This document shows positions 1,491 to 56,153 of a stretch of DNA of 64,000 bases, piece after piece. This stretch comes from Fimbriimonadaceae bacterium (GTDB taxonomy: Bacteria; Armatimonadota; Fimbriimonadia; Fimbriimonadales; Fimbriimonadaceae). The position numbers and the translations under genes were made by a program. The number at the start of each line of letters is the position of its first letter. Position 1 is the first letter of the stretch. Where the stretch lies: NCBI GenBank assembly GCA_020847855.1, contig JADLBH010000017.1, forward strand, positions 1 through 64,000. The letters are read 5' to 3'. Under the pieces are notes generated by a model. It ran no database searches. It worked only from the letters and a program-made list of their open reading frames with translations, and had not been told where the DNA came from.

Positions 1491-1516
1491 TTGCTAGCTT
1501 TTCGAATGTCGGCAGT

Positions 1517-4882: not shown

Positions 4883-4888
4883 GCGTCT

Positions 4889-4920
4889 ACTGTACCGGTA
4901 GCGGGCGGTTGTGGTATAGT
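4889..4920. promoter_or_regulatory. Divergent promoters for cas9 and tracrRNA
   Basis: On the plus strand TATAGT (4915-4920) ends 6 bases before the anti-repeat, so initiation near 4927 would start tracrRNA almost exactly at its anti-repeat. On the minus strand TACAGT (4894 to 4889) ends 6 bases before the cas9 ATG. The -35 elements are poor on both sides. The two -10 elements lie in a 32-bp region, so the promoters probably overlap and may compete. Confidence 0.55.
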
Positions 4921-4926
4921 AGCGAA

Positions 4927-16964: not shown

Positions 16965-17035
16965 AGACGCTATTGTGACGCCGGGAAGGGCATGTCAGCA
17001 CACCCGAGGGCATGCGGATGACCAGCGGTCTCAGG

Positions 17036-17929: not shown

Positions 17930-17999
17930 CGGGCCTTTTATGGCACAGCTATCGCAAAGTCACCGTGAAATCCATGCCAGGAAGCGTGGCCAGGTACGG

Positions 18000-18974
18000 T
18001 CATGTCGGCAAGAGCTGTCCGAAGATCGCGTCTATAGTCGTGAACGCCAAGCAGACCACGGTGTCGGCACCGCCGTAGTAGACCGCGATTCGGCCGGTTC
18101 CTGCGTCGCACACCGCCGCACAGGGGAAGACGACGTTCGGCACGTCCCCTGCTAGTTCGTAGGGTGCCTGGGGAGACATGAGATATCCCGGTGTGCGAGC
18201 CCGAACACGCCACGGCTCTTCGAGGTCGAGCAGCGCGGCGCCCCAGTGATAGACGAACCCGTTGCAGCTCGTCAGTACCCCGTGGTAGATCATGAGCCAG
18301 CCCTCCGTGGTCTCGATCGGCACGGGGCCTGGACCGATCTTCGTACTCTCCCACGGCTGTTCGCCCTTCATGACCCATCGGTGCCTCCCCCAATGGACCA
18401 GGTCGCGACTCTGGCTGAGAAAGACCTCCCCGAACGGGGTATGGCCGTTGTCGCTGGGTCGGCTCAAGAGCATGTAGCGCCCCCCGATCTTGCGTGGGAA
18501 GAGGACGCCGTTGCGGTTGTGGGGAAGCAGGGCGTTCTCCACCATCACGAAGTCGCGGAAGTCGGTGGTGTGGCCCAACCCTATGGTGGGACCGTGTCAC
18601 CCGTTGCACCAGGTCACGAAGAACTTTCCATCGAGCTCGACCACCCTGGGATCGTATCCATAGGCTGGAGCTTCCACGCCCTCGGGCACCTGCCACTCGA
18701 TCGGCTCGGGGGCGATCTCCCACGCCAGGCCATCGAAACTCAATCCTGAGTGCAAGCGCATCTCGCGCCGAGTGTCGTCCACTCGGAACACTCCGGCGAA
18801 GCCTCCGTTGAACGGGACGACCGCGCTGTTCAGGACGGAGTTCGAGGTCGGCGTCACACTCCGTCGGATCACGGGGTTCGCGCTGAAACGCCAAACCGGG
18901 GAACGGTCGCTTTCGCTTCGATCCTCCCAGGGCAGGTGAGGGACTGCTGGTCCAAGGAGACGAGCCGATTCCAT
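18000..18974 (-). pseudogene. GH130 mannoside phosphorylase gene interrupted by an in-frame TGA
   Basis: Both halves are in one frame and together read as a complete GH130 protein of about 325 residues. The upstream half has LPWEDR, PTSNSVLNSAVVPF, FAGVFRVDD, YDPRVVELDGKFFVTWCNG; the downstream half has [48 protein letters not shown] and [11 protein letters not shown]. The stop is TGA at 18599-18597, codon 126, where relatives have Tyr in WCNGYHGPTIG. GH130 enzymes phosphorolyse beta-mannosides. No frameshift and no other damage are visible, so this is a very recent nonsense mutation, a sequencing error, or readthrough. Confidence 0.85.
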
Positions 18975-19056
18975 GCTGGATGTGTACCTGGCCGCGACTG
19001 TGGAAAACCTTGCGGTGCCCTTGAGGGCGACGGATCGTCCCTTGTCGTGGGAAAGG

Positions 19057-19806: not shown

Positions 19807-19808
19807 GC

Positions 19809-20372: not shown

Positions 20373-20390
20373 GCGTGTAGGATGTCTTCG

Positions 20391-21533
20391 GTGTCCCGCT
20401 TCGCACTGGTCGTTTTGGGATGCGCGGTGGTCGCGTTCGCGACCGCACAGCCGCAACTTCACGCCGGCTCGGCGGTCGTTCTCGACGCAAGGACCGGCCG
20501 CGTGCTCTTCGAGCTGAACGCCGACGAACCCCTGCCTCCCGCGAGCACGACCAAGATCCTCACCGCGCTCGTGGTGGCCGCTCACACGAAGATGGACGAG
20601 ACCGTCTTCGTCCCGCCGGACGCAGTCGGGATCGAGGGCAGCAGCTTCCACCTTCGGCCCGCCGAAGCCATCTCCGTTCGTGATCTTCTCTACGCGCTCC
20701 TCCTGCGTAGCGGGAACGATGTCGCACACACGCTGGCGGTTCACGTTGCCGGGTCGGACGGTGCTTTCGCGGGCCTCATGAACAAGGAGGCGGCCATGCT
20801 TGGGTGTACAAGCTCGCGGTTTATGAACCCGCACGGCTTGCCTGCGCCAGGGCACTTGACGAGTGCTCGCGACCTCGCCACGATCGCGCGAACCCTCCTT
20901 GAAAACCCCGACCTTGCCGAGATCGTCCGCAGCCAGCGCCACCAGGTGAATCGCGGCAAGGCGAGCAAGGACACGTTGCTCGTGAATCGGAACGTCTGGC
21001 TCGCACGGGATCGAAGCGCAGTCGGGGTGAAGACCGGCCATACGCAGGAAGCGGGAGAGTGCTTCGTGGGTGCAGCCGACCGCCCGCAAGGCCAGATCGT
21101 GACCGCGCTCCTGGGATCCACCGATTGGTTGAGAGACCAAGAGGCTCTCGTCGCCTACGCCTACGGCACCTTTCACGAGGCAGCTGTGGCGTCGCCTGGC
21201 AAGGAGCTGGCGCAAATCAGAGTGGAGAACGGGGCTTCGAACTTGGTCCCTGTGGGCGTTGCGAGCGAGTATCGGGCCATGGTCGCCGAGGGGGAGCGGT
21301 GGACCCTAGAACCCCGTCGGAGCAGCGTGCGAGCACCCGTCCGGCAGGGGGACCACCTAGGCATCGGCGTCCTGCGCTCGCCCGAGGGGTTCGAAGTGAA
21401 GCTCCCCGTGGTGGCCTTGGGAACGGTGGAGGAGTCGTTTCTTGCGCGTTACGGTTCTTTACTCGCCGGCGCCTTGGCCGGCGCGGCCGTTGGACTGGGC
21501 CTGCTCGCCCGCCGCGCGCGGCGTGCTGCATGA
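20391..21533 (+). CDS. D-alanyl-D-alanine carboxypeptidase (PBP5 family)
   Basis: Peptidoglycan carboxypeptidase of family S11. Signal peptide ending near AFATAQ; SxxK motif PASTTK; SxN motif LLRSGNDVA; KTG motif VKTGHT, so the active site is complete. A beta-sandwich domain follows and the protein ends in a hydrophobic helix with a basic tail (GLLARRARRAA), which should hold it at the membrane outer face. An ATG at 20382 would add three residues, but TAGGAT at 20378-20383 overlaps that ATG and ends 7 nt before the GTG at 20391, so the GTG is preferred as a leaderless start. Confidence 0.92.
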   Translation: MSRFALVVLGCAVVAFATAQPQLHAGSAVVLDARTGRVLFELNADEPLPPASTTKILTALVVAAHTKMDETVFVPPDAVGIEGSSFHLRPAEAISVRDLLYALLLRSGNDVAHTLAVHVAGSDGAFAGLMNKEAAMLGCTSSRFMNPHGLPAPGHLTSARDLATIARTLLENPDLAEIVRSQRHQVNRGKASKDTLLVNRNVWLARDRSAVGVKTGHTQEAGECFVGAADRPQGQIVTALLGSTDWLRDQEALVAYAYGTFHEAAVASPGKELAQIRVENGASNLVPVGVASEYRAMVAEGERWTLEPRRSSVRAPVRQGDHLGIGVLRSPEGFEVKLPVVALGTVEESFLARYGSLLAGALAGAAVGLGLLARRARRAA

Positions 21534-21540
21534 TGGTGCC

Positions 21541-22263
21541 ATGAGACTGCACAGGTACATCGGTCAGTGCGGGGTGACCAGCCGCAGGAAGGCCGAGGAG
21601 ATGATCGCCGAAGGGAGGGTGAGCGTGAACGGCGAACGGATCACGACCCCAGGGACGAGCGTGGAGGAGGGCGATGCGGTCTGCGTGGACGGACGTCCGA
21701 TCGAACTGCCCAGGAAGGCGTACTATGCCTTGAACAAGCCGACCGGCTACGTGACGACCCTCTCCGACCCGGCCCGTCGCAGGACCGTCTCCGAACTGTT
21801 CCCACCGAGCGTGGTCGGCCTCAAGCCCATTGGCAGGCTGGACGTGATGACGAGCGGGCTCTTGCTCGTGACAAACGATGGCGAATTCGCCTCGAAGGTG
21901 GGCCACCCGAGCGGCATGGTGGAGAAGGAGTATGTGGCGAAGGTCCGTCGCGAGCCGAGCGACCGGGACCTCGCCCGGCTGGAGCGTGGGGTCTTCGAAG
22001 GGGGAGAGCGCCTTGTGGCGGTGAGCGCGAGGCTGACGGGCAGGGCCACCCCCCAGCGTCCTGCAACGGTACGCATCGTTCTCCACGAAGGGAAGAACCG
22101 CCAAGTGCGCCGGATGCTTTCGGTGATCGGTTGCCCCGCCCTCCAGTTGGAAAGAGTGCGATACGGCCCCATCGTGCTGAAAGGGATGCGGCCTGGCGAG
22201 TGCCGAAAGCTGGGAATGGAGGAAGTGGGCAAGATCCTCAAGTCCTTGGGAAGTGCCCAGTGA
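21541..22263 (+). CDS. rluB: 23S rRNA pseudouridine synthase, RluB/RsuA family
   Basis: 240-aa pseudouridine synthase with an N-terminal S4 RNA-binding domain (MRLHRYIGQCGVTSRRKAEE, G.V.VNG) and catalytic motif GRLDVMTSGLLLVTNDG, where Asp is the nucleophile. The C-terminal EGKNRQVRRML motif is typical of RluB/RluE/RsuA. The ATG follows the carboxypeptidase stop by 7 bases. It overlaps the next gene by 4 nt (GTGA), so the two are probably translationally coupled. Confidence 0.93.
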   Translation: MRLHRYIGQCGVTSRRKAEEMIAEGRVSVNGERITTPGTSVEEGDAVCVDGRPIELPRKAYYALNKPTGYVTTLSDPARRRTVSELFPPSVVGLKPIGRLDVMTSGLLLVTNDGEFASKVGHPSGMVEKEYVAKVRREPSDRDLARLERGVFEGGERLVAVSARLTGRATPQRPATVRIVLHEGKNRQVRRMLSVIGCPALQLERVRYGPIVLKGMRPGECRKLGMEEVGKILKSLGSAQ

Positions 22264-24329
22264 ACCGTCTCGGCAAGTCCCGGTCGCCCTATCTCCGCCA
22301 ACACGCAGAGAACCCGGTCGCGTGGCAGGAGTGGGGTGACGAGGCTTGGAGCGAGGCGAAGCGCCTCGACCGGCCGGTTTTCCTCAGTATCGGATATAGC
22401 TCGTGCCACTGGTGTCACGTGATGGCTCACGAGTCCTTCGAGGACCGGGAAGTGGCGGATGCGCTCAATCGAGCGTTCGTCTGTATCAAGTTGGATCGGG
22501 AGGAGCGGCCCGATGTGGACGAGCTGTACATGACGGCGGTGCAAGTCTCTTCCGGGCACGGGGGTTGGCCCATGAGCGTCTTCTTGACCCCCGACGCCGA
22601 ACCATTCTTCGCAGGCACCTATTTTCCCAAGAACGGCTCTGCGGGCCGTCCGGGGTTTCTTCAGATCGTTCACGCCCTCGCCTCGGCATGGGAGACCCAG
22701 GGGGCCGAAGTGTGCGAGCAGGCCGGGAAGTTCGCGGCCGCGGTGCGTGGCGCCTTGGACCGGGCCTTTCCGAGCTTCGAGGGCTCCGATCCTGGGGCAT
22801 TGGCCGCCGCCGCAGTGCGCCATGCCGAGTCACGGTTCGATTCTGCCTACGGCGGCTTTGAGGGTGCCCCGAAGTTTCCGCCCCACTCTCTCCTCCATTT
22901 CCTTCAGGACTATGCGGCCTGGCCGCGGGCCGAGCCTGGTCTTGCAAGGTCAGCCGGGCGTATGGCTTCCGAGACTTTGAGCGCCATCGTTCGAGGTGGG
23001 ATCCACGACCACGTGGGCGGTGGCTTTCACCGTTACGCGACGGATGAGCGATGGCACTTGCCCCACTTCGAGAAGATGCTCTCGGACAACGGCTTGCTCC
23101 TGGAAGCCCTGTCCCGCGACGGTGGACACCCTGGCGCTGTTTCTCGCCTGGTCGCGTGGCTGGGGCGGGAGATGACGGCTCCCGAAGGTTGGTTCTACTC
23201 CGCGTTGGACGCGGATATCGAGGGCGAAGAGGGGATTACGTATACATGGACCCTCGCCGAACTGCAGGCAGTGCTGGGAGCGCAGGCAAAGGACGTGGCC
23301 CACGCCTTCCAAGTCTCGGAGGCCGGCAACTATCTCGACGAGGCGAGCCGGGTTCGGACGGGCCGGAACGTCCTTCACCTCCTGCCTGGCGCACAGGTCG
23401 AGAAAGAGGTGTTGGACGAGTTGCTCGCAACCCGCAACGCTCGGCCGCATCCGGGCTTGGACGACAAGGGTGTCGCGGCCTGGAACGCCTTTGCGATTCG
23501 TGGCTTGGTCGCCGCGGGTGCGACAGCCGCCGCGGTGAGATGTGGTGAAAACTGGATGGCAGACGAGCCCATGAGAGTGCTCGGTGGTGACGTCCCCGGC
23601 TTCCTGGAGGACTACGCGGCCCTGGCGGACGCGATGCTCGACCTGGCTGACGTAACGGGCGGTGAACGTTGGCGGGAAAGCGCGGAACGGATCGCCCACC
23701 ATATGGTAGAGCGGTTTGGCCCTGCGTCGGGGTTGCTGCGGTTCAGTTCGGAGGGCCATGGTCCGCTGCTGGGAGTGTCCCGTCCGATCCTCGATGGCTC
23801 CACGCCGGCACCGAACGCCCTGGCCGTACGGGCGTTGCGCCGGGTGGGTCGGCACGACGACGCGCGGGCGATCGCCGAGGCGGGCTTAGGCTGGGTCGAG
23901 CGGGCACCGGGTGCGTGCTCGGGCCTGCTTCGTGAGCTTATAGCCTTGGAAATGGCACCTGCCTTGCGCCCGACACGCAAGCCGCTGGGAACCATCGAAG
24001 CGCGCCTCGAACCGGTGGAGTGCCCTCTGGATTCCAGCGGTTCGGCGTCATCGGAACTCGTGCTCAACGTCCCCCCGGGCTACTTCCTGACTTCGCATGA
24101 CCCCATCGCACGGTGGATGGAGCCCCTCGAGGTGCGCGTCGAGGGCGTACACGCCGAAGCAGGTTTCCCAGAAGCCCCGGAAGGTAGCTACGCGGGTGAG
24201 GTTCGGATCCCGTTGCGACTCCAAGCGACGAAAGGGCGGGAGTTTGCGGTCACGGTTCGAGCCCAGCTCTGCTCGGAGAGCGAGTGCCTCTTGCCCCAGG
24301 AGCTCGAACTCACGGGCAAGCTTGTGTAG
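22260..24329 (+). CDS. YyaL-like thioredoxin-domain protein with DsbD-like C-terminal domain
   Basis: A 689-aa member of the DUF255/YyaL (SPATA20-like) family. The N-terminal thioredoxin-like domain carries Cys49 and Cys52 in SSCHWCHVMAHESF, then KLDREERPDVDELYM and GHGGWPMSVFLTPD. The middle is an (alpha/alpha) barrel with GGIHDHVGGGFHRYA and the HFEKML loop. The last 100 residues (from about 590) add a beta-rich domain ending CSESECLLPQ, resembling the N-terminal domain of DsbD or related redox partners. No signal peptide, so cytosolic. Start GTG overlaps the rluB stop. Confidence 0.88.
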   Translation: MNRLGKSRSPYLRQHAENPVAWQEWGDEAWSEAKRLDRPVFLSIGYSSCHWCHVMAHESFEDREVADALNRAFVCIKLDREERPDVDELYMTAVQVSSGHGGWPMSVFLTPDAEPFFAGTYFPKNGSAGRPGFLQIVHALASAWETQGAEVCEQAGKFAAAVRGALDRAFPSFEGSDPGALAAAAVRHAESRFDSAYGGFEGAPKFPPHSLLHFLQDYAAWPRAEPGLARSAGRMASETLSAIVRGGIHDHVGGGFHRYATDERWHLPHFEKMLSDNGLLLEALSRDGGHPGAVSRLVAWLGREMTAPEGWFYSALDADIEGEEGITYTWTLAELQAVLGAQAKDVAHAFQVSEAGNYLDEASRVRTGRNVLHLLPGAQVEKEVLDELLATRNARPHPGLDDKGVAAWNAFAIRGLVAAGATAAAVRCGENWMADEPMRVLGGDVPGFLEDYAALADAMLDLADVTGGERWRESAERIAHHMVERFGPASGLLRFSSEGHGPLLGVSRPILDGSTPAPNALAVRALRRVGRHDDARAIAEAGLGWVERAPGACSGLLRELIALEMAPALRPTRKPLGTIEARLEPVECPLDSSGSASSELVLNVPPGYFLTSHDPIARWMEPLEVRVEGVHAEAGFPEAPEGSYAGEVRIPLRLQATKGREFAVTVRAQLCSESECLLPQELELTGKLV

Positions 24330-24339
24330 AATCGGGGCC

Positions 24340-25299
24340 GTGAACGTACTCGTCGCGGACAAGTTTGAGCGAAGTGGGATCGAGGGCCTGGAGTCCCTGG
24401 GTTGTCAAGTGACGGTGGAGCCTTCCCTGAAGGACGATTCCCTGATCGAGGCGATCCGTGAGCAGTCTCCGGAGGTGTTGATCGTCCGCTCGACCAAGGT
24501 GCCCGCCGCCGCGTTCAATCTCGGTGTGCTCAAGCTTGCGGTTCGCGCTGGTGCCGGATACAACAACCTCGATACCGAATCAGCGAAAGCCGCAGGGGTT
24601 CCCGTGTGCAATTGTCCAGGCAAGAACGCGGCTGCCGTCGCCGAGCTGGCGTTTGGATTGATCCTCTCTTTGGATCGGCGCATCCCGGACAACGTGACCG
24701 CGTTCCGGGCTGGCGTCTGGGACAAAGCTGGATTTGGCAAGGCCAAGGGCATCGCGGGCTCCACCCTCGGCCTCGTGGGCTTCGGTCAGATCGGTAAGGA
24801 GATGGTCCCTCGGGCGAAGGCGTTCCAGATGGAGGTTTTGATCCACAGTCAATGGCTCGACCCCGGCACGGCGGCCTCGCTCGGGGTGGAGCGTGCATCC
24901 ACTCTGGAAGAACTCGCAAGGAGGAGCGACATCGTGAGCGTCCACTGCTCGCTTCGCCCGGAAACCAAGGGGATGCTGGGGAGGGCCTTCTTTGACGCGA
25001 TGAAGCCCGGTGCGAGCTTCATCAACACGAGCCGGGCCGAGGTCGTGGACGAGGCCTCGCTCCTCGAAGCGGCGCGGACTGGTGCCGTGCGGGCCGGTCT
25101 CGATGTCTTCGACGGCGAGCCCTCCGTGTCCCAGGGAGAGCAGGACAGTCCTTGGAGGACTGTGGAAGGTGCCTATGTCACGCACCATATCGGGGCGAGC
25201 ACGGACCAGGCCCAGGAGGCGGTCGCCGCAGAGACGGTGCGGATCGTTCGGGAGTTTATGGCTACCGGAAAGGCGCCGAACGTCGTGAACGGAGTCTAG
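24340..25299 (+). CDS. D-3-phosphoglycerate dehydrogenase-like 2-hydroxyacid dehydrogenase
   Basis: 319-aa D-isomer-specific 2-hydroxyacid dehydrogenase. NAD-binding motif LGLVGFGQIGKEM, the RAGAGYNNLD strand, FINTSRAEVVDE, and the catalytic His in THHIGAST. The short form without an ACT domain fits SerA, the first step of serine synthesis, but other 2-hydroxyacids are possible. TAGAAT ends 7 nt before the GTG start, supporting it. The stop interlocks with that of alr at CTAG. It has a paralogue at 35023. Confidence 0.88.
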   Translation: MNVLVADKFERSGIEGLESLGCQVTVEPSLKDDSLIEAIREQSPEVLIVRSTKVPAAAFNLGVLKLAVRAGAGYNNLDTESAKAAGVPVCNCPGKNAAAVAELAFGLILSLDRRIPDNVTAFRAGVWDKAGFGKAKGIAGSTLGLVGFGQIGKEMVPRAKAFQMEVLIHSQWLDPGTAASLGVERASTLEELARRSDIVSVHCSLRPETKGMLGRAFFDAMKPGASFINTSRAEVVDEASLLEAARTGAVRAGLDVFDGEPSVSQGEQDSPWRTVEGAYVTHHIGASTDQAQEAVAAETVRIVREFMATGKAPNVVNGV

Positions 25300-26399
25300 T
25301 AGCGGTACTTTCGAGGCACTCGCGACATGAGTCGGGTCACGATCTCGTGGGAGTTGGTGCCCGCCGCCTCGGCGAGGGCGGAAGCTTGCACCTTGCCGCC
25401 GATCACGCTCACTTGGTCACCGACGGCGACGGGCGGGCACTCGGTGACGTCGAGGATCGTCTGATCCATGCACACGAGGCCCACCACGGGTGCGAAGCAA
25501 CCATGTACGTCCATCATGGCCTTGTTGCTCAGTGCCCTGGGATAGCCGTCCCCATATCCGACTCCGACCGTTGCGAGCCGGGTCGCGCGCTTGGTCCGGA
25601 ACGTGCTGCTGTAGCCGATCGTGGCACCTTGGGGAACTTCCCTCACGCTCGTTACGCGCGAGTACCACGCCATCACTGGCCTCGCCTCGCCTTGGAGGAG
25701 GAGGAAAGGGTCAACCCCGTAGCCAATCAGGCCCACACGAACCATCGAGTAGCGGCTCTCCCCATAGGCCACCGTGCCTGCGCTGTTGGCGGCGTGGATC
25801 GTCTCGGGCACGATCCCTGCTGCCGCCAAGGTGCGGCGCACCGAGTCGAACTGGGCGATCTGGGCAAGGGTGGATTCCCGATCCCGCGAGCTGTCAATGA
25901 AGTGTTGAGCGAGGCCGACTAACTGGATTCCTGGGGTGGACCTCGCCCGTTGGGCAAGAGCCAGGGCTGTCGAAGGGTCGCAACCGAACCTGTGGATTCC
26001 GGTGTCCACCTTGAGGTGGACTCGGGCTACCTTTCCGATGCTTGTGGCGGCCTTTCCCAGGGCCTCCAGGATCATCGGTTCCTCGACCATGGTGTCGAGG
26101 TCGTAGAAGACGGCCTGTTCGACCTCAACCGGCAAGATCGGCGAGAGCACGACCACGCGGTTGTCTATCCCCACGTCGCGCAGGCTGATCCCTTCTTGGA
26201 TCGTTGCGACGGCAGCCCAAGCCGCGCCATTGCGCACCGCGTGGCGAGAGATGGGGACGAGCCCGTGCCCATAGGCATCGGCCTTGACCACCAATGCGAT
26301 CTCGGGACCCTCCGGGCCGAGGCGCCTTCGCACACACCTCAAGTTGTGGGAGAGTGCGGCAAGGTCGATCTCGGCCCAGCTCCGAGGATGGGGGTTCAC
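25296..26399 (-). CDS. alr: Alanine racemase
   Basis: PLP enzyme making D-alanine for peptidoglycan. WAEIDLAALSHNL at the N-terminus, Lys39 in VVKADAYGHG binding PLP, HLKVDTGIHRFG, and the catalytic Tyr region VGVGYGDGYPR with CMDQ. An ATG at 26417 would add six residues, but CACAAT ends 6 nt before the GTG at 26399 and lies inside that longer reading, so the GTG start is preferred; it also gives the usual N-terminal length. About 367 aa. Confidence 0.95.
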   Translation of the reverse strand: MNPHPRSWAEIDLAALSHNLRCVRRRLGPEGPEIALVVKADAYGHGLVPISRHAVRNGAAWAAVATIQEGISLRDVGIDNRVVVLSPILPVEVEQAVFYDLDTMVEEPMILEALGKAATSIGKVARVHLKVDTGIHRFGCDPSTALALAQRARSTPGIQLVGLAQHFIDSSRDRESTLAQIAQFDSVRRTLAAAGIVPETIHAANSAGTVAYGESRYSMVRVGLIGYGVDPFLLLQGEARPVMAWYSRVTSVREVPQGATIGYSSTFRTKRATRLATVGVGYGDGYPRALSNKAMMDVHGCFAPVVGLVCMDQTILDVTECPPVAVGDQVSVIGGKVQASALAEAAGTNSHEIVTRLMSRVPRKYRY

Positions 26400-26450
26400 G
26401 CCAAGATTGTGCCCCATTTCCAGGTTCGCGGACGGGATTCCACCGTAAGG

Positions 26451-26480
26451 TTGACAGCAGACTCATAAATCGGGCACAAT
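26451..26480 (+). promoter_or_regulatory. Promoter of the TetR-family gene
   Basis: Consensus -35 TTGACA (26451-26456), an 18-bp spacer and -10 CACAAT (26475-26480). The ATG is only 6 nt after the -10 hexamer, so the transcript should start at or next to the start codon. Confidence 0.7.
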
Positions 26481-26486
26481 GGACGC

Positions 26487-27038
26487 ATGAAGGAGACGCG
26501 ATCCTCCATCCTCGCCGCGGCGTACGACATGATGGGCAACAACGGGCTGGAGGACGTCCATGCTCGCACGGTGGCGGCGGCGATCAAGATCAACCACGCC
26601 ACGGTCCACTATTACTTCCCGAAGCGCGAGGATCTCTTGGTCGGAGTCGCCGACTATGCGCTCGAGACTTTGCGGGAGGATCGCAAGCGGTTCCAAGCGG
26701 GGTCTGCGGACTCGAAGGCTAAGGTAGGGGCAGAGATGTCCTTGGCTGAGGCCTACGCGAAGAAAGGGAGCCGCTTCGCCAAGGTCCTCGCCGGTCTCGT
26801 TGTGGCGGGCGCAGGTTCGGCGAAGGTGAAAAAGAAGGTGAAGGAGCTCTTCGTGGAGTGGGGCTCAGTCTGCAAGTCGGATTTGGCGGGGGCAAAGCCG
26901 AAGAAGGGTGCGGTCTTCGCCGACCCTGACTTGATGCTAGCGACGTTCTTCGGCCTTGCGCTCACCAATCTCGGGATCGAGGGTGGAATGGACGTCGGGG
27001 CCAAGCTCGACGCCGTTTACGACTCGATCTTCGCGTAG
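26487..27038 (+). CDS. TetR/AcrR family transcriptional regulator
   Basis: 183-aa regulator with an N-terminal TetR helix-turn-helix (ILAAAYDMMGNNGLEDVHARTVAAA, then HATVHYYFPKREDLL, split here) and a ligand-binding C-terminal half rich in Lys (SAKVKKKVKELF). Ligand unknown. Its 3' end overlaps the convergent ABC ATPase gene by 22 bases. A leaderless mRNA is predicted from the promoter just upstream. Confidence 0.88.
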   Translation: MKETRSSILAAAYDMMGNNGLEDVHARTVAAAIKINHATVHYYFPKREDLLVGVADYALETLREDRKRFQAGSADSKAKVGAEMSLAEAYAKKGSRFAKVLAGLVVAGAGSAKVKKKVKELFVEWGSVCKSDLAGAKPKKGAVFADPDLMLATFFGLALTNLGIEGGMDVGAKLDAVYDSIFA

Positions 27039-27976
27039 TCGGCAACTTTCCAGCACGCGCAAGCTCGGCCGCTCCCGATAGGAAGCGCGTCGGGCTCCTC
27101 GACGCACCGCTCGAAGCGATCTGGGCACCGAGGTGCGAAGGCACAGCCCGCAGGGAGGTTTCGAAAGTCTGGAGGTGAGCCAGGGATGGTGGCTAGTCGC
27201 TCCACACCCGGTTGGGGCAAAGCTTTGAGCAACATCCTGGTGTAAGGGTGGCTGGGCTCGTGGAGAACCTGCGCCGCACTCCCGGTCTCGATGACCCTTC
27301 CCGCATAGAAGACGGCGACGCGGTCGCTCACGCTCCCGATGACCCCGATGTCGTGGGAGACCAAGAGGATTGCGGTGCCCACGCTCCGCTGCAGGTCTTG
27401 GATCAGTCGCAGGATCTGGGCCTGGAGGGTGACGTCGAGCGCGGTGGTCGGCTCGTCAGCGATGAGGAGCTTCGGCTTGGCGGCATAGGAGATCGCGATC
27501 ACGACGCGTTGTCGTTGCCCGCCGCTGAGTTGGTGAGGGAACCTTTGGGCCGAGGCTTCCGGGTTGGGTACGCCGACTTTTGCGAGCATTTCCACCGCCT
27601 TGGCGTTGGCCTCCCTTGCGCTCATGCCTTGGTGATAGACCATCACCTCTGCGATCTGGGGCCCGATTCGCATCATGGGGTTGAGGGACGTGAACGGGTC
27701 TTGCATCACCATCGAGACCGTCGTCCCACGGATGCCGCGCCACTCCTTTTTGCTGAGCCGGGTCAAATCGTGGCCGTCGAGCAGGGCCTGCCCGGCGGTG
27801 ATCCGGCCGTGGGTCGGCAGCATGCCCATGATCGTGAGGGCGGTCAGGCTCTTGCCGCATCCGGACTCTCCCACGACCCCAACGGTCTCGCCCTCGTTCA
27901 CTTCGAGGTCCACACCGCGAAGGATCTCCGTGCCGCCGATCTGCACTCGGACCCCCTGAAGCGAAAGCAACGCCAT
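27017..27976 (-). CDS. Oligopeptide/dipeptide ABC transporter ATP-binding protein (OppD/DppD type)
   Basis: 319-aa ABC ATPase: Walker A GESGCGKS, signature LSGGQRQRV, Walker B LLIADEPTTALD, switch His in VSHD. The C-terminal extension CAFAPRCPDRFERC is the oligopeptide_ABC C-terminal motif with Cys that can bind an Fe-S cluster. It energises peptide (or nickel/sugar) uptake with partners that are not in this window, so it is an orphan here. The ATG at 27976 gives the usual MALLSLQGV start; longer readings would run into the divergent response-regulator gene. Confidence 0.9.
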   Translation of the reverse strand: MALLSLQGVRVQIGGTEILRGVDLEVNEGETVGVVGESGCGKSLTALTIMGMLPTHGRITAGQALLDGHDLTRLSKKEWRGIRGTTVSMVMQDPFTSLNPMMRIGPQIAEVMVYHQGMSAREANAKAVEMLAKVGVPNPEASAQRFPHQLSGGQRQRVVIAISYAAKPKLLIADEPTTALDVTLQAQILRLIQDLQRSVGTAILLVSHDIGVIGSVSDRVAVFYAGRVIETGSAAQVLHEPSHPYTRMLLKALPQPGVERLATIPGSPPDFRNLPAGCAFAPRCPDRFERCVEEPDALPIGSGRACACWKVADYAKIES

Positions 27977-28037
27977 CACGGTGATGATAGTCGGGCGGCA
28001 GGCTTCGTTGCAGGTTCCTGAGTATAATCCCGGATCC

Positions 28038-28700
28038 ATGTCAACCACGATCAGGGTCGTTATCGCAGACGACGAGAGCGGGTACAGGAACGCGATCCAA
28101 CGGACGCTGACCCTCATGCCCGAATGCCAAGTGCTGGCGGTCTGCAAGGATGGGCAAGAAGCACTGGACGAGTGTCTGAACGAGCCGCCTGACGTGCTCC
28201 TCACCGACATCAACATGCCCAGGATGGACGGTCTTGAGCTCATGCGCAGGTTGCTCCGCAAGGAGCGCGAGATCCAGGTCGTGGTCTTGACCGTGAACGA
28301 GGACGACGATGTGGTCTTTGACGCCTTTCGCGCGGGGGCCCTCGGATACCTGCTGAAGACCTCCACTCCCCAAGAGGTGATCGAGGCGATCCGGCTCGCA
28401 CACCGAGGCGAGGCCAAGATCACCCCCAAGATCGCGACAAAGGTCATCGAGGACTTTCGACGGGTCAAGGACGATGACGAGAACGACGACTCGGAGCTTT
28501 ATGTCCTGAGCGACCGCGAGACCGAGATCCTCGAGCTCATCGCCAAGGGTATGCGCAACAAGGAGATCGCCTTGCACCTCTCCATCGCGGAGAAGACGGT
28601 CAAGAACCACGTGAGCAACATTCTTAAGGCGCTCCAAGTGAACTCGCGCACCGAAGCGGCCATGAAGGCCGTGCGCGCGAAGCTGGTCCAAGGCTCCTAA
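28038..28700 (+). CDS. NarL/FixJ-type response regulator
   Basis: 220-aa two-component regulator: receiver domain with Asp11-Asp12, phospho-acceptor Asp57 in LLTDINMP and Lys107 in YLLKTST; then a LuxR-type helix-turn-helix (LSDRETEILELIAKGMRNKEIA, split; KTVKNHVSNIL). No partner kinase gene is adjacent. A perfect TATAAT (28023-28028) ends 9 nt before the ATG, so the leader is at most a few bases. Its stop interlocks with that of nhaA. Confidence 0.95.
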   Translation: MSTTIRVVIADDESGYRNAIQRTLTLMPECQVLAVCKDGQEALDECLNEPPDVLLTDINMPRMDGLELMRRLLRKEREIQVVVLTVNEDDDVVFDAFRAGALGYLLKTSTPQEVIEAIRLAHRGEAKITPKIATKVIEDFRRVKDDDENDDSELYVLSDRETEILELIAKGMRNKEIALHLSIAEKTVKNHVSNILKALQVNSRTEAAMKAVRAKLVQGS

Positions 28701-42408: not shown

Positions 42409-45322
<2,914 letters not shown>

Positions 45323-45326
<4 letters not shown>

Positions 45327-46177
45327 CCGGTATCACGCTGGCCGCGGCCCTGCTTGCCTGGACCCCGTTCTCGCTCATGTGCGAGCTGGACAATGTCGCC
45401 GTGAACGAGAGTTCAGGGCTCGCAGCGAGCAACCACGCCCCTGGGGTCTTCTACACGCACAACGACAGCGGGGACGGCCCGAGGTTCTTCCGGTTCCGCA
45501 AGGACGGGACCGTGGATGCGACGTTCAACCTCTCCGCCACCGCCGTAGACTGGGAAGACATGGAGTCCGCCGTTGTCGGCGGTACTCGGTTCCTGTACTT
45601 TGGAGACATCGGCGACAACGCGAGGGCGAGGGCGAAGGTCACGGTCTACCGGTGCGAGGAACCCGCGCTCACGGCGGGGTCGAGCGTGGTGGCAACGACG
45701 AAGTTCGACTTCCGGTACCCGGACGCACCTCACAACTGTGAGGCGATGTTCGTCGCCCCGGATGGAGCGGTGTGGTTCGTCACAAAAGAGTCTGGCCCGG
45801 CCAAGGTGTTTCGGGGAACGCCCTCGACGAGCGGCACTGCGACCCTGGAACCGAAGGGCACCCTCACGATCAATACCGGCGGTCTAGGGGGCCAGCTGGT
45901 CACGAGCGCAACGATCTCTCACGATGCGAGGCTGGTCGTCGTGCGGACCTACACTGGGGTGCGGTCCTACCGGGCTGGAGCAGGCCTGGAAGGGTGGTGG
46001 AACTCGCCGGAAGAATCACTGGGAAACCTGATCGAGATCCAAGGGGAGGCGGTGTGCTTCTCCCTGGACGATGGCGCCGTCCTTACCTCCAGCGAAGGCG
46101 TTCCATGCCCAATTCTCATCAGTTTGCGAAAGAATCCACGTGCGACCGGTGGTTTGAACCTAAGACCGCCCCTTTGA
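45323..46177 (+). CDS. Secreted beta-propeller-like protein
   Basis: 284-aa protein with a signal-like N-terminus (MTGITLAAALLAWTPFSLMC) and a propeller-like series of strands: ESSGLAASNHAPGVFYTHND, DWEDMES, YFGDIGDNAR, NCEAMFVAP. The SGLAASR..PG..W.HNDSG pattern and the D-W-E-D motif are seen in a family of secreted bacterial propeller proteins of unknown role. ATG overlaps the ogg stop (ATGA). Confidence 0.75.
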
Positions 46178-46214
46178 CATGGGGATAAGTGGCCTTTCGA
46201 CCCAGGCCTTTGGT

Positions 46215-46234
46215 CAGGATTCCTGCGGTTTTTT
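46215..46234 (+). terminator. Possible terminator after the ligA operon
   Basis: Short palindrome CAGGA/TCCTG (46215-46225) followed by CGG and TTTTTT (46229-46234), 38 bases past the stop of the propeller gene. The stem is short, so confidence is low. Another 78 bases without a recognised element lead to the next gene. Confidence 0.35.
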
Positions 46235-46312
46235 GCCGACCCTTGAACCGCCGAGCCGGTATACAAGCGTTCGCGGCACCCGCCGTAGCAATGCGCAACG
46301 GTTACTAGCCTT

Positions 46313-46972
46313 ATGCGAAAGTCGTCCCTTTTGGCGACGCTCACACTCCTTCTGACTTCGGTCACGGGCGTGTCAGCGAGCCCTTCAGTCATCAACATCA
46401 ATATGAAGCTCGCCGAGCGGCTCGAGATCGAGAAGAAGCCGCTCGAGGTCAAGTACGTTTTCGATCGGACCCTGGGGAGGGGTCGAACCATGAAGATCGA
46501 GGAAGGGGTCGAGGGCCGGGTCTATACTCGGTTCGCCCAGGTCTTCGTTCACGGCAAGCTCGTCGCCGAGAAGCCGGTGAAGCAGACGATTCGCGAGTCG
46601 CAGCCTGCGGTGTACGCCATGGGGCCTTCCGGTTTCTCCACGAGTCGTGGCAGCTTCACGCGGGCCCAGGTTCGCGAGATGGAGTCCACCGCCTACACCC
46701 CGGACGCGGGCCGTGGGGCACGCGCTACGTTCCGCACTCGCACCGGGCGCCGCGCCGCCTATGGGGTGGTCGCCGTGGACCCGCGCGTCATTCCGTTGAA
46801 CACCCTCCTGTTCGTAGAGGGCTATGGCTTCGCGGTGGCGGCGGACACCGGAGGTGCGATCAAGGGCAATATCATTGACGTTTGTCTTCCGACGAACGCA
46901 GAATGCATGCAATGGGGCCGCAGGGACGTAACGGTCCACATCTTCCGGGAAAAAGTCCAACCGGGCGAGTAG
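46313..46972 (+). CDS. Secreted G5/3D-domain cell-wall protein (YabE-like)
   Basis: 219-aa exported protein with a signal peptide (to about 22), a G5-type beta domain (about 45-95) and a C-terminal 3D domain with its three Asp: VDPRVIPLNT, AADTGGAIKG and IDVCLP. The ESTAYTP motif opens the 3D domain. This double-psi barrel occurs in lytic transglycosylases and Rpf-like proteins, so peptidoglycan remodelling is likely. It sits directly upstream of rsmA, as yabE does in Bacillus. The rsmA start lies inside this gene. Confidence 0.9.
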   Translation: MRKSSLLATLTLLLTSVTGVSASPSVININMKLAERLEIEKKPLEVKYVFDRTLGRGRTMKIEEGVEGRVYTRFAQVFVHGKLVAEKPVKQTIRESQPAVYAMGPSGFSTSRGSFTRAQVREMESTAYTPDAGRGARATFRTRTGRRAAYGVVAVDPRVIPLNTLLFVEGYGFAVAADTGGAIKGNIIDVCLPTNAECMQWGRRDVTVHIFREKVQPGE

Positions 46973-47760
46973 CCGAGGTCGTCGCCAGGGCCAAGCGGCA
47001 CGGCCTCGATCCGAGGAAGTCCCTTGGCCAGCACTTCCTGGTCTCGCCTGGGCACGTCTCCCGCATCGTGGACGAGGCCCGTGGCTTGGCTTCGGTCGTC
47101 GAGGTCGGCCCTGGGCCCGCGACCCTGACCCCCGGCCTGGTCGAAGCGGTGGGCACCGTGGTGGCGGTGGACATTGACCCTCGGGTAGGGCCGATTCTGG
47201 CGGAGGCGGCACCGGAGGCTCGGTTCATCCTTGCCGACATCCTTGAGTTCAACCTGGCGGCGTGCATTGGTACCCTGCCCCGTCCTTGCGGCATCGTCTC
47301 GAACATGCCCTATAACATCACGGGGCCGTTGCTGGACCGGGTAGCCCGGGTGGCGGACTCGGTTGACCGTGCCATCCTCATGATGCAGACGGAAGTGGCG
47401 CGGAAGGTCATGGCGCTCGCCGGGAACTCGGCGCGAGGCGCCCTCTCCGTTCTCATGCAGTGGGACTTCGAGATCGCGCTGGTTTCTCGGGTGCCGGCGG
47501 GGGCGTTCTATCCTCCGCCCAAGGTGGAGAGCACGGTGCTGCGGCTCACCCCTCGGGCGGCGCGGCCCGATCCACGGACCCGAGCCATCGTCCGGTCGGG
47601 CTTTGCTCACCCCAGGAAGACCTTGGCCCACAACCTCGGTTGGCCGCGGGCGGATATCCTCGGGCTTCTCGAGGAGCTCGACCACCCACCGTTGGTCCGT
47701 GCGCACCAACTCTCACAGGAGGACTGGCAGTTTCTGGCATCGAAGTCACCGACGCCTTGA
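46912..47760 (+). CDS. rsmA: 16S rRNA adenine dimethyltransferase KsgA/RsmA
   Basis: About 282-aa SAM methyltransferase that dimethylates two adenines near the 3' end of 16S rRNA. KSLGQHFLV, motif I VVEVGPGPATLTPGL, motif IV as NMPYNIT (usually NLPY) and the PPPKVESTVLRL segment. The start is uncertain: ATG at 46912 or 46903, both within the upstream 3D gene, because no start codon exists between there and the conserved region. No Shine-Dalgarno is visible. queG follows with a 4-nt overlap. Confidence 0.93.
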   Translation: MGPQGRNGPHLPGKSPTGRVAEVVARAKRHGLDPRKSLGQHFLVSPGHVSRIVDEARGLASVVEVGPGPATLTPGLVEAVGTVVAVDIDPRVGPILAEAAPEARFILADILEFNLAACIGTLPRPCGIVSNMPYNITGPLLDRVARVADSVDRAILMMQTEVARKVMALAGNSARGALSVLMQWDFEIALVSRVPAGAFYPPPKVESTVLRLTPRAARPDPRTRAIVRSGFAHPRKTLAHNLGWPRADILGLLEELDHPPLVRAHQLSQEDWQFLASKSPTP

Positions 47761-48686
47761 AGGCGCAAGCCCGCTTGGCAGGTTTTTCCTTGGTCGGCGT
47801 CGCCAGGGCCAAAGAGCCGACCGGTCACTCCTTCTATCGAGCCTGGATCGAGAAGGGCTACCACGGCACGATGGAGTACCTTTCCAACTCGATCGCGCAA
47901 CGAGGCGACCTCGATTCGGTCCTTCCTGGTGTGCGCAGCGTGCTGGCCTGCGCGATGTTCTATTCGCGCCCAGCCCGGCAAGAGTCCCCGCGCATCGCTC
48001 AATATGCCCTGGGGCGGGACTATCACAAGGTGTTGCGCGGCAAGCTCCGCAAACTGGGGCTTTGGCTCGAATCCCAAGTACCCGGCTGCGTGACCCGGCC
48101 CTGTGTGGACTCGGCGCCCATTCTCGAGCGAGAACTTGCCCAGAACGCTGGTCTAGGCTGGTTCGGTAAGAACACTTGTTTGATCAATAGCGAGCGCGGC
48201 AGTTGGTTCGTGCTCGGCATGCTGCTCACGACCGCGGAGCTCTGGCCCGATGCTCCGGCGGTCGGCGGGTGTGGCAGCTGCCAGCGATGTGTGGAGGCAT
48301 GCCCGACCGGGGCGATCGTCCACGAGGAGGGCCGCTGGCAAGTGGACGCGCGAAGGTGTGTGAGCTACCTGACCATCGAGCACCGCGGCGGTTTCAGCCG
48401 GGAACAAGCGGCGTGGGTCGGGGACTGGACGTTCGGTTGCGACGTCTGCCAGGAGGTGTGCCCGTTCAACGAGCCTCGTGCGAGCCAGCCGATGCGATCA
48501 CCTCGGGTCGAGGAGGAAGGGCTTGCATCGAGCCGGGAATGGCCCTCGGTGGGGCACATTGCGACGATCGAGGAGGGGGAATGGGACCTCCTCACGCGCG
48601 GGTCGGCAGTGCGCCGAGCCGGTTGGTCGGGCTTGCAACGGAACGCGCGCGCCAACCTGGAGAACGCTCAGCAGACGAAGGGCTGA
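47757..48686 (+). CDS. queG: Epoxyqueuosine reductase
   Basis: 309-aa cobalamin- and Fe-S-dependent enzyme for the last step of queuosine synthesis. FSLVGVARAKEP, the CVDSAPILERELAQNAGLGWFG region (shown split), and two [4Fe-4S] motifs: CGSCQRCVEACPTGAI and CDVCQEVCPF. The start TTG at 47757 overlaps the rsmA stop (TTGA) in the same style as other couplings here and puts the reading at the usual family N-terminus. Its last 19 bases overlap the convergent dprA-like gene. Confidence 0.93.
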   Translation: MKAQARLAGFSLVGVARAKEPTGHSFYRAWIEKGYHGTMEYLSNSIAQRGDLDSVLPGVRSVLACAMFYSRPARQESPRIAQYALGRDYHKVLRGKLRKLGLWLESQVPGCVTRPCVDSAPILERELAQNAGLGWFGKNTCLINSERGSWFVLGMLLTTAELWPDAPAVGGCGSCQRCVEACPTGAIVHEEGRWQVDARRCVSYLTIEHRGGFSREQAAWVGDWTFGCDVCQEVCPFNEPRASQPMRSPRVEEEGLASSREWPSVGHIATIEEGEWDLLTRGSAVRRAGWSGLQRNARANLENAQQTKG

Positions 48687-52562: not shown

Positions 52563-54326
52563 ATGCCTCGCTCCATTGTCCTTTCCAATGGACGTCTGTT
52601 CGTGGGATATGACGGGGCGGGCCAAGTCAAGGACCTCACCTGGCCCAGGGTGGGAATGCCGAACCATGTGGTGGATCGCCGAATTACGTGGGGAGTTTGG
52701 GCCGATGGGAAGGTGCGCTGGCTAGGCGATCCGGGCTGGGACGTTTCCGCGCGGTACGAAGTGGGCTCCTTGATCGCAGAGTGGCGGGCCGTGGACAACG
52801 AGCGCGGGTTGGAACTCGTGACGCGAGACGCAGTTTCGCCACAAACTGACCATTGGGTGAAGGAGATGGCCATTCGAGATACGACGGGCCGAAATCGAAC
52901 CGTGGTCCTACTCGCGACCCACGACCTTGCCCTGGGGCAGAGCGATATCGAGAACACCGCGTACTGGTCGCTGGCGACGGGTTGGCTCGTCCACTACCGG
53001 TGGGAATGGGCGGTCGGGTTTCGATTGGACGGGGACGGAGAACTCTCGTCGGCTTGTGGGATCGCAGGTTTCGAGGGGTTGGAAGGCACGTGGCGGGACG
53101 CCGATGACGGCAAGCTATCCGGCATCCCGATCGCGCAAGGCTCCGTGGACTCCACGCTCGCCCTTCGGGTGGCAACGGCCGCGAATGGAGAGGCTCGGGC
53201 GGTGTGGCAGGCCGCGTGGGCGGAGAGCGCCGAGAAGGCTGCGGCCTTGGTGCCGGCCGATCCTGCGTCGCTCTTTGCGGCAAGGCGGGAGGTGGACGCG
53301 GCCGATTTCGACGTCTTGATCGCAAAGTCCCTGCAGGACGAGGGCGGTGCCTGGATGGCGGCGAATGACTCCGACATCTTGGAGACCAACCGCGCGACGT
53401 ATTCGAACTGTTGGCCGAGGGACGGGGCCATCGCCGCCCACCTTATGGTGGACATGGGTCGCCAGGAGGAGGCGCGAAGGTTTCTCGAGTTCTGTGAGCG
53501 GATCCAGCGCCCCGAGGGCCCGCCGTTCCTGCAAAAGTACACGGCAGAAGGGAAGTTAGGGTCGAGTTGGCACCCTTGGACGAAGGACGGCGTCGCGATC
53601 GTCCCCTGGCAGCAGGACGAGACTGCCTTGGTGCTCCTGGCGGCGGCGGCCTACAGTGCCAGGTTTGGGGGCTTCGAAGGCCTGATCGAGCGCTGTGCCG
53701 ATTTCCTTGCGAGCTCGGTGGACGCCTGGGGGTTGCCCCTGCCTTCCTGGGACATGTGGGAAGAGCGGTACGGGGTACACACCTCCACCGCGTGCGTGAC
53801 GGCACGTGCCCTCCGCGAGGCAGGCACGGGGTTCGAGGGACGTTGGGACTCAGTCTCCGAGCAGATGCTCTTGGCCGTGCAGGAGCGGCTCTTCCTTGCG
53901 GAGGAGGGAAGGTATGCGAGGAGCCTAGGCGACTCGACGCCGGACAGCGCGCTCCTCTTCGGCTTGCGCTACGTGCCTGATCTGCCGCATGCCGAGGAGA
54001 CGGTTCGTCACTTGGGGTCAGTGCTCCAGGTGGGGACCGGTGTGGGCGGTGTGGCCCGATACCCTGGCGACTACTACTTCAGACTGACGGAGGAGGCGCC
54101 AGGAAACCCCTGGGTGATATGCACCATTTGGTGGGAGACTTGGAACGCTCGTCTCGGTGACGCATCGGCAGAGGCCAGGCTCGAGGCTTGGCTTCGCCAG
54201 GTGGGGGGGCCAACCGGGATCCTTCCCGAGCAGCTGCATGCGATGGAGGGCACTCCGCTGAGTGTGAGCCCCCTCGCTTGGTCGCATGTCGAGGCGGCCC
54301 GGTTCCGCGCCCGGCTCTGGAAGTAG
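52563..54326 (+). CDS. GH15 glucoamylase-like glycoside hydrolase
   Basis: 587-aa intracellular glucoamylase/glucodextranase-like protein. N-terminal beta-sandwich (about 1-250), then an (alpha/alpha)6 barrel with NCWPRDGA, YTAEGKLGSSWHPW, VPWQQDETALVL and a late LPEQLHA, where the acidic residues WPRD, QQDE and PEQ are the usual catalytic positions. No signal peptide. AATAAT ends 6 nt before the ATG, with GGAGG touching the start. Ten bases separate it from the GH127 gene, so they are co-directional in one region of sugar metabolism. Confidence 0.9.
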   Translation: MPRSIVLSNGRLFVGYDGAGQVKDLTWPRVGMPNHVVDRRITWGVWADGKVRWLGDPGWDVSARYEVGSLIAEWRAVDNERGLELVTRDAVSPQTDHWVKEMAIRDTTGRNRTVVLLATHDLALGQSDIENTAYWSLATGWLVHYRWEWAVGFRLDGDGELSSACGIAGFEGLEGTWRDADDGKLSGIPIAQGSVDSTLALRVATAANGEARAVWQAAWAESAEKAAALVPADPASLFAARREVDAADFDVLIAKSLQDEGGAWMAANDSDILETNRATYSNCWPRDGAIAAHLMVDMGRQEEARRFLEFCERIQRPEGPPFLQKYTAEGKLGSSWHPWTKDGVAIVPWQQDETALVLLAAAAYSARFGGFEGLIERCADFLASSVDAWGLPLPSWDMWEERYGVHTSTACVTARALREAGTGFEGRWDSVSEQMLLAVQERLFLAEEGRYARSLGDSTPDSALLFGLRYVPDLPHAEETVRHLGSVLQVGTGVGGVARYPGDYYFRLTEEAPGNPWVICTIWWETWNARLGDASAEARLEAWLRQVGGPTGILPEQLHAMEGTPLSVSPLAWSHVEAARFRARLWK

Positions 54327-54336
54327 TCTCGCAAGA

Positions 54337-56118
54337 ATGAAGGTCGTCCTCACCGATCCGTTTTGGAGCGAGATCAGGGGCCAGATGGCCACTGTGGGCC
54401 TCGCCCATCAGTTTGAGCAGATCGTGTCCACGGGAAGGTTGGAGAACTTCCGCTTGACCGCATCGGGCGGTGGCGGTGGCCACAGCGGACGGTGCTACGA
54501 CGATAGCGACGTATACAAGTGGCTGGAGGCCGCGAGTTACGCGACCGGCCTCGGCCAGGAGCCCGAGGGGATGGCGCCAACGATCAACGCGATCTCCGAG
54601 GCGCAAGCTGGCGACGGCTACCTTCATACTTGGAGCCAGTTGGGCCACGGATCGGGTCGGTGGTCCAGCCTTTGCGCCGACCACGAGGCCTATTGCATGG
54701 GGCACTTGATCGAGGCCGGCGTCGCCCACTTCGGCGCGACCGGCTCGCGCGCCCTGCTCGAAACTGCGGAGCGGGCTGCAGGGTGCTTGGAAGCGCAGTT
54801 TGGTTAAAGCGGCCTCCATGCCGCGTGCGGTCACCAAGAGGCCGAGGTCGCACTCGCTCGCTTGGCGCAAGTCACCGGGAACGAAGGCTACCGTGCGCTC
54901 GGCGACAGGATGATTGCCGCCCGTGGCTTGCCCGCTAGTGCATTCAAGGCAGAGTGCCAGATCGAGGACGGCCCGTCGGCGAGGTACCGGCCCTTGGTGG
55001 TCAGGGACGGGCAGTACGAAGGATCCTATTTCCAGGATCACGCCCCGCTCGAAGAGTGCAGTGAGGTGGTGGGCCACGCTGTTCGGGCGATGTATTACTT
55101 CTGCGGAGCGATGGACTGCGCCGCCAACGGCCGTTACGATGACGCGCTAGGGCGCCTTTGGGCGAACCTCGTGGGTCGCCGCATGTACATCACCGGCGGT
55201 ATTGGGTCGGCGGGGGCGAACGAGGGCTTCACTGCGGACTACGACCTCCCGAACCGGCACGCCTATGCCGAAACGTGCGCGGCCATCGGGCTCGTGATGT
55301 GGGCATCCCGGATGGCCCGGCGGTTTCAAAGCGTGGAGGCGGTCGGCGTTTTGTTGCGGGCCCTCTACAATGCAGTGCTCTCGGGTGCTTCCCAGGACGC
55401 GCGCGGCTACTTCTATGCCAATCCCCTGGAGAGTCAAGGCGAGCATGCCCGACGGCCATGGTTCGAGTGCGCGTGCTGTCCGCCCAACATTGCGCGGATG
55501 GTGCTTTCGGTGGAGAGGTACTTGGCTTGGGAGGACGACGCGGGATTGGTCCTGGCCGCTCCCGTCGCAGGAAGATACGAGGTGGGCGGGCACGTCGTGA
55601 ACGTGGAGTCGGACTACCCTTGGGGGAACGATTTCACGCTTGCCACCGAGACCCAAGGAACGATCGCCGTACGGGTCGCCGATCCGTTCGGGGGTCAAGG
55701 CACGCTCTCTTGGGATGGTGGCGAGGCACGGAGCGAGGACGGTTGGCTCGTTGCGCACGCCCTGGGTGGAGGCGTTGTGCGAGGAAGGTTAGGCCATGTG
55801 CCGGAGTTTGTGAGGTCGCACCCGCTCGTGCCTGAGAACGCGGGCCGGTTGGCGGCTGTGGACGGTCCGATCGTTTACTGTGCGGAAGCGGTCGCGAGCG
55901 AGCCGAGTCCGAACGCCTTCCGCGTCCGTGCTTCGGCGAAGCCGAAGCGAAGCTCGGGCGGCCTGAGGGTGGAAGGAACCGATCTGTCTTATGCAGCCTC
56001 GCTCTATTCGGGCTCTGCGGAGCTGGTCGGGACTCCGCGATCGCTCGATCTCATTCCGTACTCCACTTGGTCGAACCGTGGCCCTTCGGTCATGCGGGTG
56101 TGGCTTGCCGAGGCATAA
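54337..56118 (+). pseudogene. GH127 beta-L-arabinofuranosidase-like gene interrupted by an in-frame TAA
   Basis: One continuous frame codes a protein of about 593 residues broken by a single TAA at 54805-54807 (codon 157). Before it: DPFWSEIRGQM, YDDSDVYKWLEA, SWSSLCADHEAYC-like metal region. After it: AACGHQEAEVALARL, MYITGGIGSAGANEGF, YAETCAAIGLVMWASRM, FECACCPPNIARM (the Cys-rich zinc/catalytic motif). Relatives read straight through at this point (FG...HQE). Everything else is intact, so it is a fresh nonsense mutation or a sequence error. TAGTCT ends 7 nt before the ATG. Confidence 0.85.
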
Positions 56119-56121: not shown

Positions 56122-56153
56122 GAGCCCCAGTCCCGTGATTGGGACTGGGGCTC
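56122..56153. terminator. Bidirectional terminator between the GH127 and protease genes
   Basis: Perfect 13-bp inverted repeat GAGCCCCAGTCCC / GGGACTGGGGCTC with a 6-base loop, between two convergent stop codons (56118 and 56177). On the minus strand it is followed by TTCTTAT, a weak T-tract. Confidence 0.8.

What the first reader, a model, noticed from the sequence alone, without database searches (positions are those of the whole stretch)
54805..54807. A second sugar-enzyme gene (GH127) broken by one in-frame TAA
The frame continues intact for over 430 codons after the stop with the Cys-rich catalytic motif kept. Together with the GH130 case, two of the window's glycosidase genes carry one fresh nonsense codon each, with different stop codons, which argues against recoding and for relaxed selection on sugar use or shared sequencing problems.
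Basis: partly seen in the sequence, partly recalled or inferred. Interest (0 to 1): 0.5.

Follow-up and report, generated by a model that had tools for sequence, protein, structure and literature searches.

The report
Sugar-enzyme gene with stray stop codon
A bacterial gene for an arabinose-removing type of enzyme carries one premature stop codon in an otherwise healthy-looking sequence; this is most likely a very recent loss-of-function mutation, or else an error in the assembled sequence, and is ordinary.

Summary
TAA 54805-54807 interrupts a GH127-family gene (ATG 54337, final TAA 56116-56118) at codon 157 of 593. Both halves match the same Pfam family, 436 further codons stay open and the catalytic motifs are kept. 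The sibling case is real too: TGA 18597-18599 in the genome's only GH130 match. Both genes are single matches, have intact orthologues in a similar neighbourhood in a family-level relative, and show ordinary coding constraint on both sides of the stop, so the stops are very young or not real. Recoding is not supported: all three stops end normal genes, none of 44 tRNA genes reads a stop, and all 50 homologues aligned run through the GH127 position in one open frame. 'Relaxed selection on sugar use' is not shown: the other glycosidases tested are intact, and the same kind of lesion was found elsewhere in an exonuclease III-like gene, an esterase gene and probably an FG-GAP protein gene. Best reading: a recent nonsense mutation in this strain (nascent pseudogene or polymorphism). 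A consensus or assembly error is the main rival, because no reads could be checked. Ordinary.

The parts
54337..56118 (+). GH127-family glycosidase gene (beta-L-arabinofuranosidase-like), interrupted; 593 codons plus the final stop
   Evidence: PF07944 on both sides of the stop and PF20737 at the C-terminus; only PF07944 match in the genome, '1 TAA' inside; best solved relatives of the part after the stop are GH127 enzymes such as 4qjy and 3wkw
54805..54807 (+). in-frame TAA, codon 157, in the stretch just before the CGHQE motif
   Evidence: sequence; 50 of 50 homologous loci run through this column in one open frame
54808..56115 (+). 436 further open codons, with motifs YAETCA and ECACCPPN kept
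   Evidence: aligned to 4qjy
52563..54326 (+). intact GH15-like gene ending 10 bases before the GH127 start, same strand, probably co-transcribed (inference)
   Evidence: PF00723 E 5.8e-12; NCBIfam TIGR01577 145 bits, below its cut-off of 820.7
56122..56153 (.). strong hairpin (14 base pairs, 4-base loop) just after the full-length stop, between convergent genes; terminator-like, but no T run follows it
   Evidence: fold -31.4 kcal/mol, z -6.1, 0 of 200 shuffles as stable; sequence
18003..18941 (-). sibling case: GH130-family gene (stretch covering the family match)
   Evidence: PF04041 on both halves; only match in the genome
18597..18599 (-). in-frame TGA in the GH130 gene; Trp or Phe at this column in the homologues aligned

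Best explanation
A vertically inherited GH127 gene, the only one in the genome, has been hit by one very recent point nonsense mutation. In cells carrying it, translation ends after 156 residues, before the part that holds the catalytic and zinc-binding motifs, so no enzyme is made: a nascent pseudogene or a loss-of-function allele segregating in the population. The stop, the intact remaining frame, the kept motifs and the conserved neighbourhood are shown. The loss of activity, and that the mutation is present in living cells, are inferred.
For: One stop and an otherwise open frame of 593 codons. Coding signal per codon 0.18 before and 0.15 after, GC3 0.81 and 0.75. NG86 dN/dS against the G016 orthologue 0.33 before and 0.21 after the stop; 16 segments of other window genes give 0.09-0.54, so no decay is visible. 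At columns conserved in homologues it departs at 0 of 19 before and 6 of 69 after the stop, rank 45 of 51, inside the range of intact homologues. The G016 orthologue is intact and has the same kind of convergent subtilase gene next to it. The lesion type recurs in unrelated genes and is described as widespread in bacteria (PMC7918605; abstract and first part of Results read).
Against: No reads and no second genome of the species or genus were available, so a consensus error is not excluded. The 6 departures of 69, all after the stop, are on the high side. No interrupted gene was confirmed in the two relatives sampled (0 of 132 and 0 of 133 genes with a homologue; 0 of 3 scan candidates tested), which could mean that this assembly is poorer.
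Confidence: 0.6

Rival explanations
1. The stop is an error of the assembled consensus (low coverage or mixed strains), and the organism has an intact GH127 gene.
For: The genome is in 41 contigs at 97% completeness and looks like a metagenome bin (inference). The rest of the gene looks constrained. PMC11017572 (abstract and first part of Results read) reports that many internal-stop pseudogenes are assembly artefacts tied to coverage, platform and assembler. Five single-stop genes (one of them only probable) in 1.11 Mb here, none confirmed in 0.78 Mb of two relatives.
Against: No frameshift pair and no further interrupted gene among 242 own genes with a homologue, beyond the two known. 0 of 33 ABC transporter and 0 of 14 GFO/IDH matches have stops. 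The counts in the relatives are not strictly comparable: fewer bases and fewer candidates tested.
Confidence: 0.3
2. The stop is read through at low frequency, so the gene still gives a little enzyme and stays under selection.
For: Constraint is seen after the stop. PMC7918605 proposes frequent readthrough of in-frame stops in bacterial genes. The stop lies in a stretch where homologues vary.
Against: No suppressor tRNA among 44 tRNA genes. None of the 50 homologous loci shares the stop. Constraint over the long branch to G016 says nothing about the time since a recent stop.
Confidence: 0.07
3. Relaxed selection on sugar use: the lineage is losing several glycosidase genes because it no longer needs them.
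For: Two glycosidase genes in one 64 kb window carry stops, and one of the three other broken genes is an esterase. Nominal excess in this window: 2 of 55 genes against 3 of 958 elsewhere in the sample, Fisher p 0.026, post hoc.
Against: GH13, GH3 and the GH15-like gene are intact. An exonuclease III-like gene, and probably an FG-GAP protein gene, are broken too. No rise of dN/dS is seen. The window was chosen because of these two genes, and the outside count is a lower bound.
Confidence: 0.15
4. The two fragments are separate genes forming a split enzyme.
For: Both halves keep family sequence.
Against: The first in-frame start after the stop is a TTG after 18 codons, past the conserved CGHQE motif. 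All 50 homologous loci run through in one frame.
Confidence: 0.02

Closest known systems
GH127 beta-L-arabinofuranosidases (HypBA1 type; PDB 3wkw, 4qjy)
   Same: Catalytic domain PF07944 and C-terminal domain PF20737; Glu and Cys motifs aligned to 4qjy
   Different: Interrupted at codon 157; the only NCBIfam match (aceric acid hydrolase) is far below its cut-off (71 and 168 bits against 950), so the exact substrate is unknown
In-frame stops in bacterial genes (nascent pseudogenes or polymorphic stops; PMC7918605)
   Same: Single nonsense codon, constrained sequence on both sides, not shared by other species. In the part read, that paper found no major functional trend except an excess of mobile-element genes; carbohydrate genes were among the largest categories by count
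   Different: Nothing distinctive found
Spurious internal-stop pseudogenes of draft assemblies (PMC11017572)
   Same: Single internal stop in an otherwise intact gene of a draft genome
   Different: Could not be tested here: no reads

Membership tests
GH127 (Pfam PF07944) | Match to the catalytic-domain profile above the curated cut-off | tested here: met
   82.4 and 164.8 bits for the two parts against 24.9; 256.1 bits read through
GH127 (Pfam PF07944) | Cys nucleophile with zinc-coordinating Glu and Cys residues | tested here: met
   NEGFT, YAETCA and ECACCPPN kept and aligned to 4qjy. E322, E338, C340 and C418 of HypBA1 seen in passages of PMC10728902; C417 as the nucleophile is recalled. 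Presence of residues only, no activity tested
GH127 (Pfam PF07944) | Continuous reading frame giving the enzyme | tested here: not met
   TAA at codon 157
Nascent pseudogene | Disabling mutation in a gene whose orthologues are intact | tested here: met
   32 of 40 relatives' genomes have a match to the part after the stop, no listed match with an internal stop. For the whole gene: 50 of 50 loci (29, 21) run through the position. Intact orthologue beside the same kind of subtilase gene in G016
Nascent pseudogene | Loss of constraint after inactivation | tested here: inconclusive
   No loss seen, as expected if very recent; dS near saturation and no close relative
Nascent pseudogene | Mutation present in the real DNA | not testable with these tools
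   No reads; no genome of the same genus among the 40 relatives
Stop-codon recoding | tRNA able to read the stop, or reassignment of TAA or TGA | tested here: not met
   44 tRNA genes, none with an anticodon for a stop; TAG 473, TGA 394 and TAA 151 end the 1018 coding segments of the sample

The most novel reading that the evidence does not exclude
The stops in the GH127 and GH130 genes are tolerated on purpose: low-level readthrough keeps two rarely needed sugar enzymes at trace amounts in this lineage.
Probability: 0.04. Interest if true: 0.45.

Novelty: new member of a known kind. Interest (0 to 1): 0.12.

Why it matters
On its own, little. It is a reminder that single-stop genes in draft genomes should not be read as adaptive loss or recoding before the reads are checked. 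If real, the strain cannot make its only GH127 and GH130 enzymes, which matters for metabolic models built from this genome.

Tried and rejected
Recoding or code change: rejected, because all three stops end normal coding segments and no suppressor tRNA was found. Failed horizontal transfer: not favoured, because both broken genes have orthologues in similar neighbourhoods in G016. Frameshift-rich assembly: not seen, 0 frameshift pairs in the three samples.

A first homology scan was swamped by antisense open frames and its output was cut, which use non-overlapping coding segments, replaced it. The reference set held loci fetched with GH127 and GH130 queries, so those two genes were sure to be covered. 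The repeat without these loci (own3: 2 of 223) found the same two, but three G016 stretches had been chosen to include GH127 or GH130 matches. A transposase candidate of G018 that at first looked like a broken gene was dropped: its upstream half matches the end of the profile and its downstream half the beginning, so these are two neighbouring copies. Literature: 'Fimbriimonadaceae' with 'pseudogene', 'in-frame stop codon' with 'GH127' and four terms on in-frame stops, metagenome genomes, pseudogenes and glycoside hydrolases gave 0 papers each. Pfam scans of other window genes served only for annotation. No structure was predicted.

Full report
What is there. The window lies in a 2.53 Mb, 41-contig genome, 97% complete. 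The best match with a record title is from a Fimbriimonadaceae metagenome-assembled genome (L032), so the organism probably belongs to or near that family (inference). On the plus strand a GH127-family gene runs from ATG 54337 to TAA 56116-56118 and is broken by TAA 54805-54807 at codon 157. The part before the stop matches PF07944 at profile positions 2-158 and the part after at 172-374, followed by the GH127 C-terminal domain. It is the genome's only PF07944 match and is listed with one internal TAA. The gene starts 10 bases after an intact GH15-like gene. A strong hairpin, 14 base pairs at -31.4 kcal/mol, follows the full-length stop; no T run follows it.

Where the stop falls. In the alignment with 50 homologous loci the stop lies just before the CGHQE motif, at a column where most homologues have Pro and others Asp, Ala, Trp, Gln or Glu. 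All 50 run through it in one open frame; the segments were picked stop to stop, so this is what shows the absence of a stop. The catalytic motifs come after it: NEGFT, YAETCA and ECACCPPN align with the solved GH127 enzyme 4qjy. A protein ending at residue 156 would lack them. The first in-frame start after the stop is a TTG after 18 codons, past the CGHQE motif; a working split enzyme is unlikely (inference).

Age of the stop. The codon-usage score per codon is 0.18 before and 0.15 after the stop, GC3 0.81 and 0.75. NG86 dN/dS against the G016 orthologue is 0.33 before and 0.21 after; for the GH130 gene 0.13 and 0.12. The yardstick lists 19 window segments, of which 3 are pieces of these two genes; the other 16 lie between 0.09 and 0.54. 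dS is close to saturation, so this is a coarse test. At columns conserved in at least 92% of the other sequences the gene departs at 0 of 19 before and 6 of 69 after the stop, rank 45 of 51; six intact homologues depart more. No clear decay has accumulated: the stop is very recent, or not in the organism. In G016 both orthologues are intact. The GH127 orthologue lies beside a convergent homologue of the window's subtilase gene (Peptidase_S8), with four other window genes (45296-48686) matched within 7 kb. The GH130 orthologue shares a 20 kb stretch with matches to at least ten other genes of the window's 14967-28700 region, in partly different order. Vertical inheritance is the simplest reading.

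The sibling case. The GH130 gene on the minus strand is broken by TGA 18597-18599, with PF04041 on both sides. It is the genome's only match; of the 45 matches in 41 genomes one other has an internal stop, a TAG in G006. The nine aligned rows (eight loci, the G016 gene in twice) have Trp or Phe there.

How common is this in the genome? I sampled 1,106,080 of 2,526,561 bases: the window, the first 20 kb or the whole of the 40 other contigs and 20 further stretches. A codon-signal scan listed 6 candidates in the window and 58 outside (13, 24, 21). Of the 58 I tested 14 by a Pfam scan across the stop (10, 4). Two are clearly one broken gene, with the two halves matching successive parts of one profile: exonuclease III-like (C27:12206, TAG) and an esterase (C5:11151, TAG; each half just under the family's cut-off alone, 41.4 bits together). 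One is probable: an FG-GAP repeat protein (C33 near 56344, TGA), with one weak repeat match before the stop (E 0.01) and three after. Of the other 11, four have different families on the two sides, four a match on one side only and three none; the last seven are undecided. The remaining 44 were set aside by eye, mostly as neighbouring genes with a start near the stop. So three is a lower bound.

Controls. In the relatives the same scan listed 19 (G018, 400 kb) and 12 (G016, 380 kb) candidates. Three of G018 were tested and none is shown to be a broken gene; none of G016 was tested. A homology scan that treats the three genomes alike found 2 interrupted of 242 own genes with a homologue (the two known cases), 0 of 132 in G018 and 0 of 133 in G016, and no frameshift pairs; it did not detect the three extra cases. 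Whole-genome family searches found stops in 0 of 33 ABC transporter, 0 of 14 GFO/IDH, 0 of 4 GH13 and 0 of 1 GH3 matches, and no GH2 match; of 4 exonuclease-family matches one has a stop.

Is the window special? 2 of 55 genes here against 3 of 958 elsewhere in the sample gives Fisher p 0.026, but the window was chosen because of these two genes and the outside count is a lower bound. I do not treat it as evidence.

Recoding and readthrough. TAG, TGA and TAA end 473, 394 and 151 of 1018 coding segments. 44 tRNA matches were found and their anticodons read; none is for a stop. Readthrough cannot be excluded by sequence. PMC7918605 argues that in-frame stops in bacterial genes are widespread, that many are under purifying selection and that they tend to persist for a short time; it found no major functional trend except mobile-element genes, with carbohydrate genes among the largest categories by count (abstract and first part of Results). 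PMC11017572 shows that many internal-stop pseudogenes are assembly artefacts (abstract and first part of Results).

Verdict. The link to sugar use is not shown. A recent nonsense mutation is the likeliest account (0.6), an assembly error the main rival (0.3).

Noticed in passing
window 126-4921 (-): Type II CRISPR-Cas genes: Cas1 (PF01867) and a Cas9 of about 1121 residues with HNH and RuvC III domains, plus a small open frame after Cas1 that may be Cas2 (not tested). The repeat array was not looked for.
   Followed up: no
G000:C27:12206 (L086:12206): The genome's best-scoring exonuclease III-like gene is broken by one in-frame TAG; the three weaker family matches have no stop.
   Followed up: partly
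G000:C5:11151 (L057:11151): A PHB-depolymerase-type esterase gene is broken by one in-frame TAG.
   Followed up: partly
L201:16344 (G000:C33, near 56344): An FG-GAP repeat protein gene is probably broken by one in-frame TGA.
   Followed up: partly
G006:C13:11646-12629: A relative's GH130 copy also has one internal stop (TAG).
   Followed up: no
window 56122-56153: Very stable 14-bp hairpin between the convergent GH127 and subtilase (Peptidase_S8) genes.
   Followed up: no
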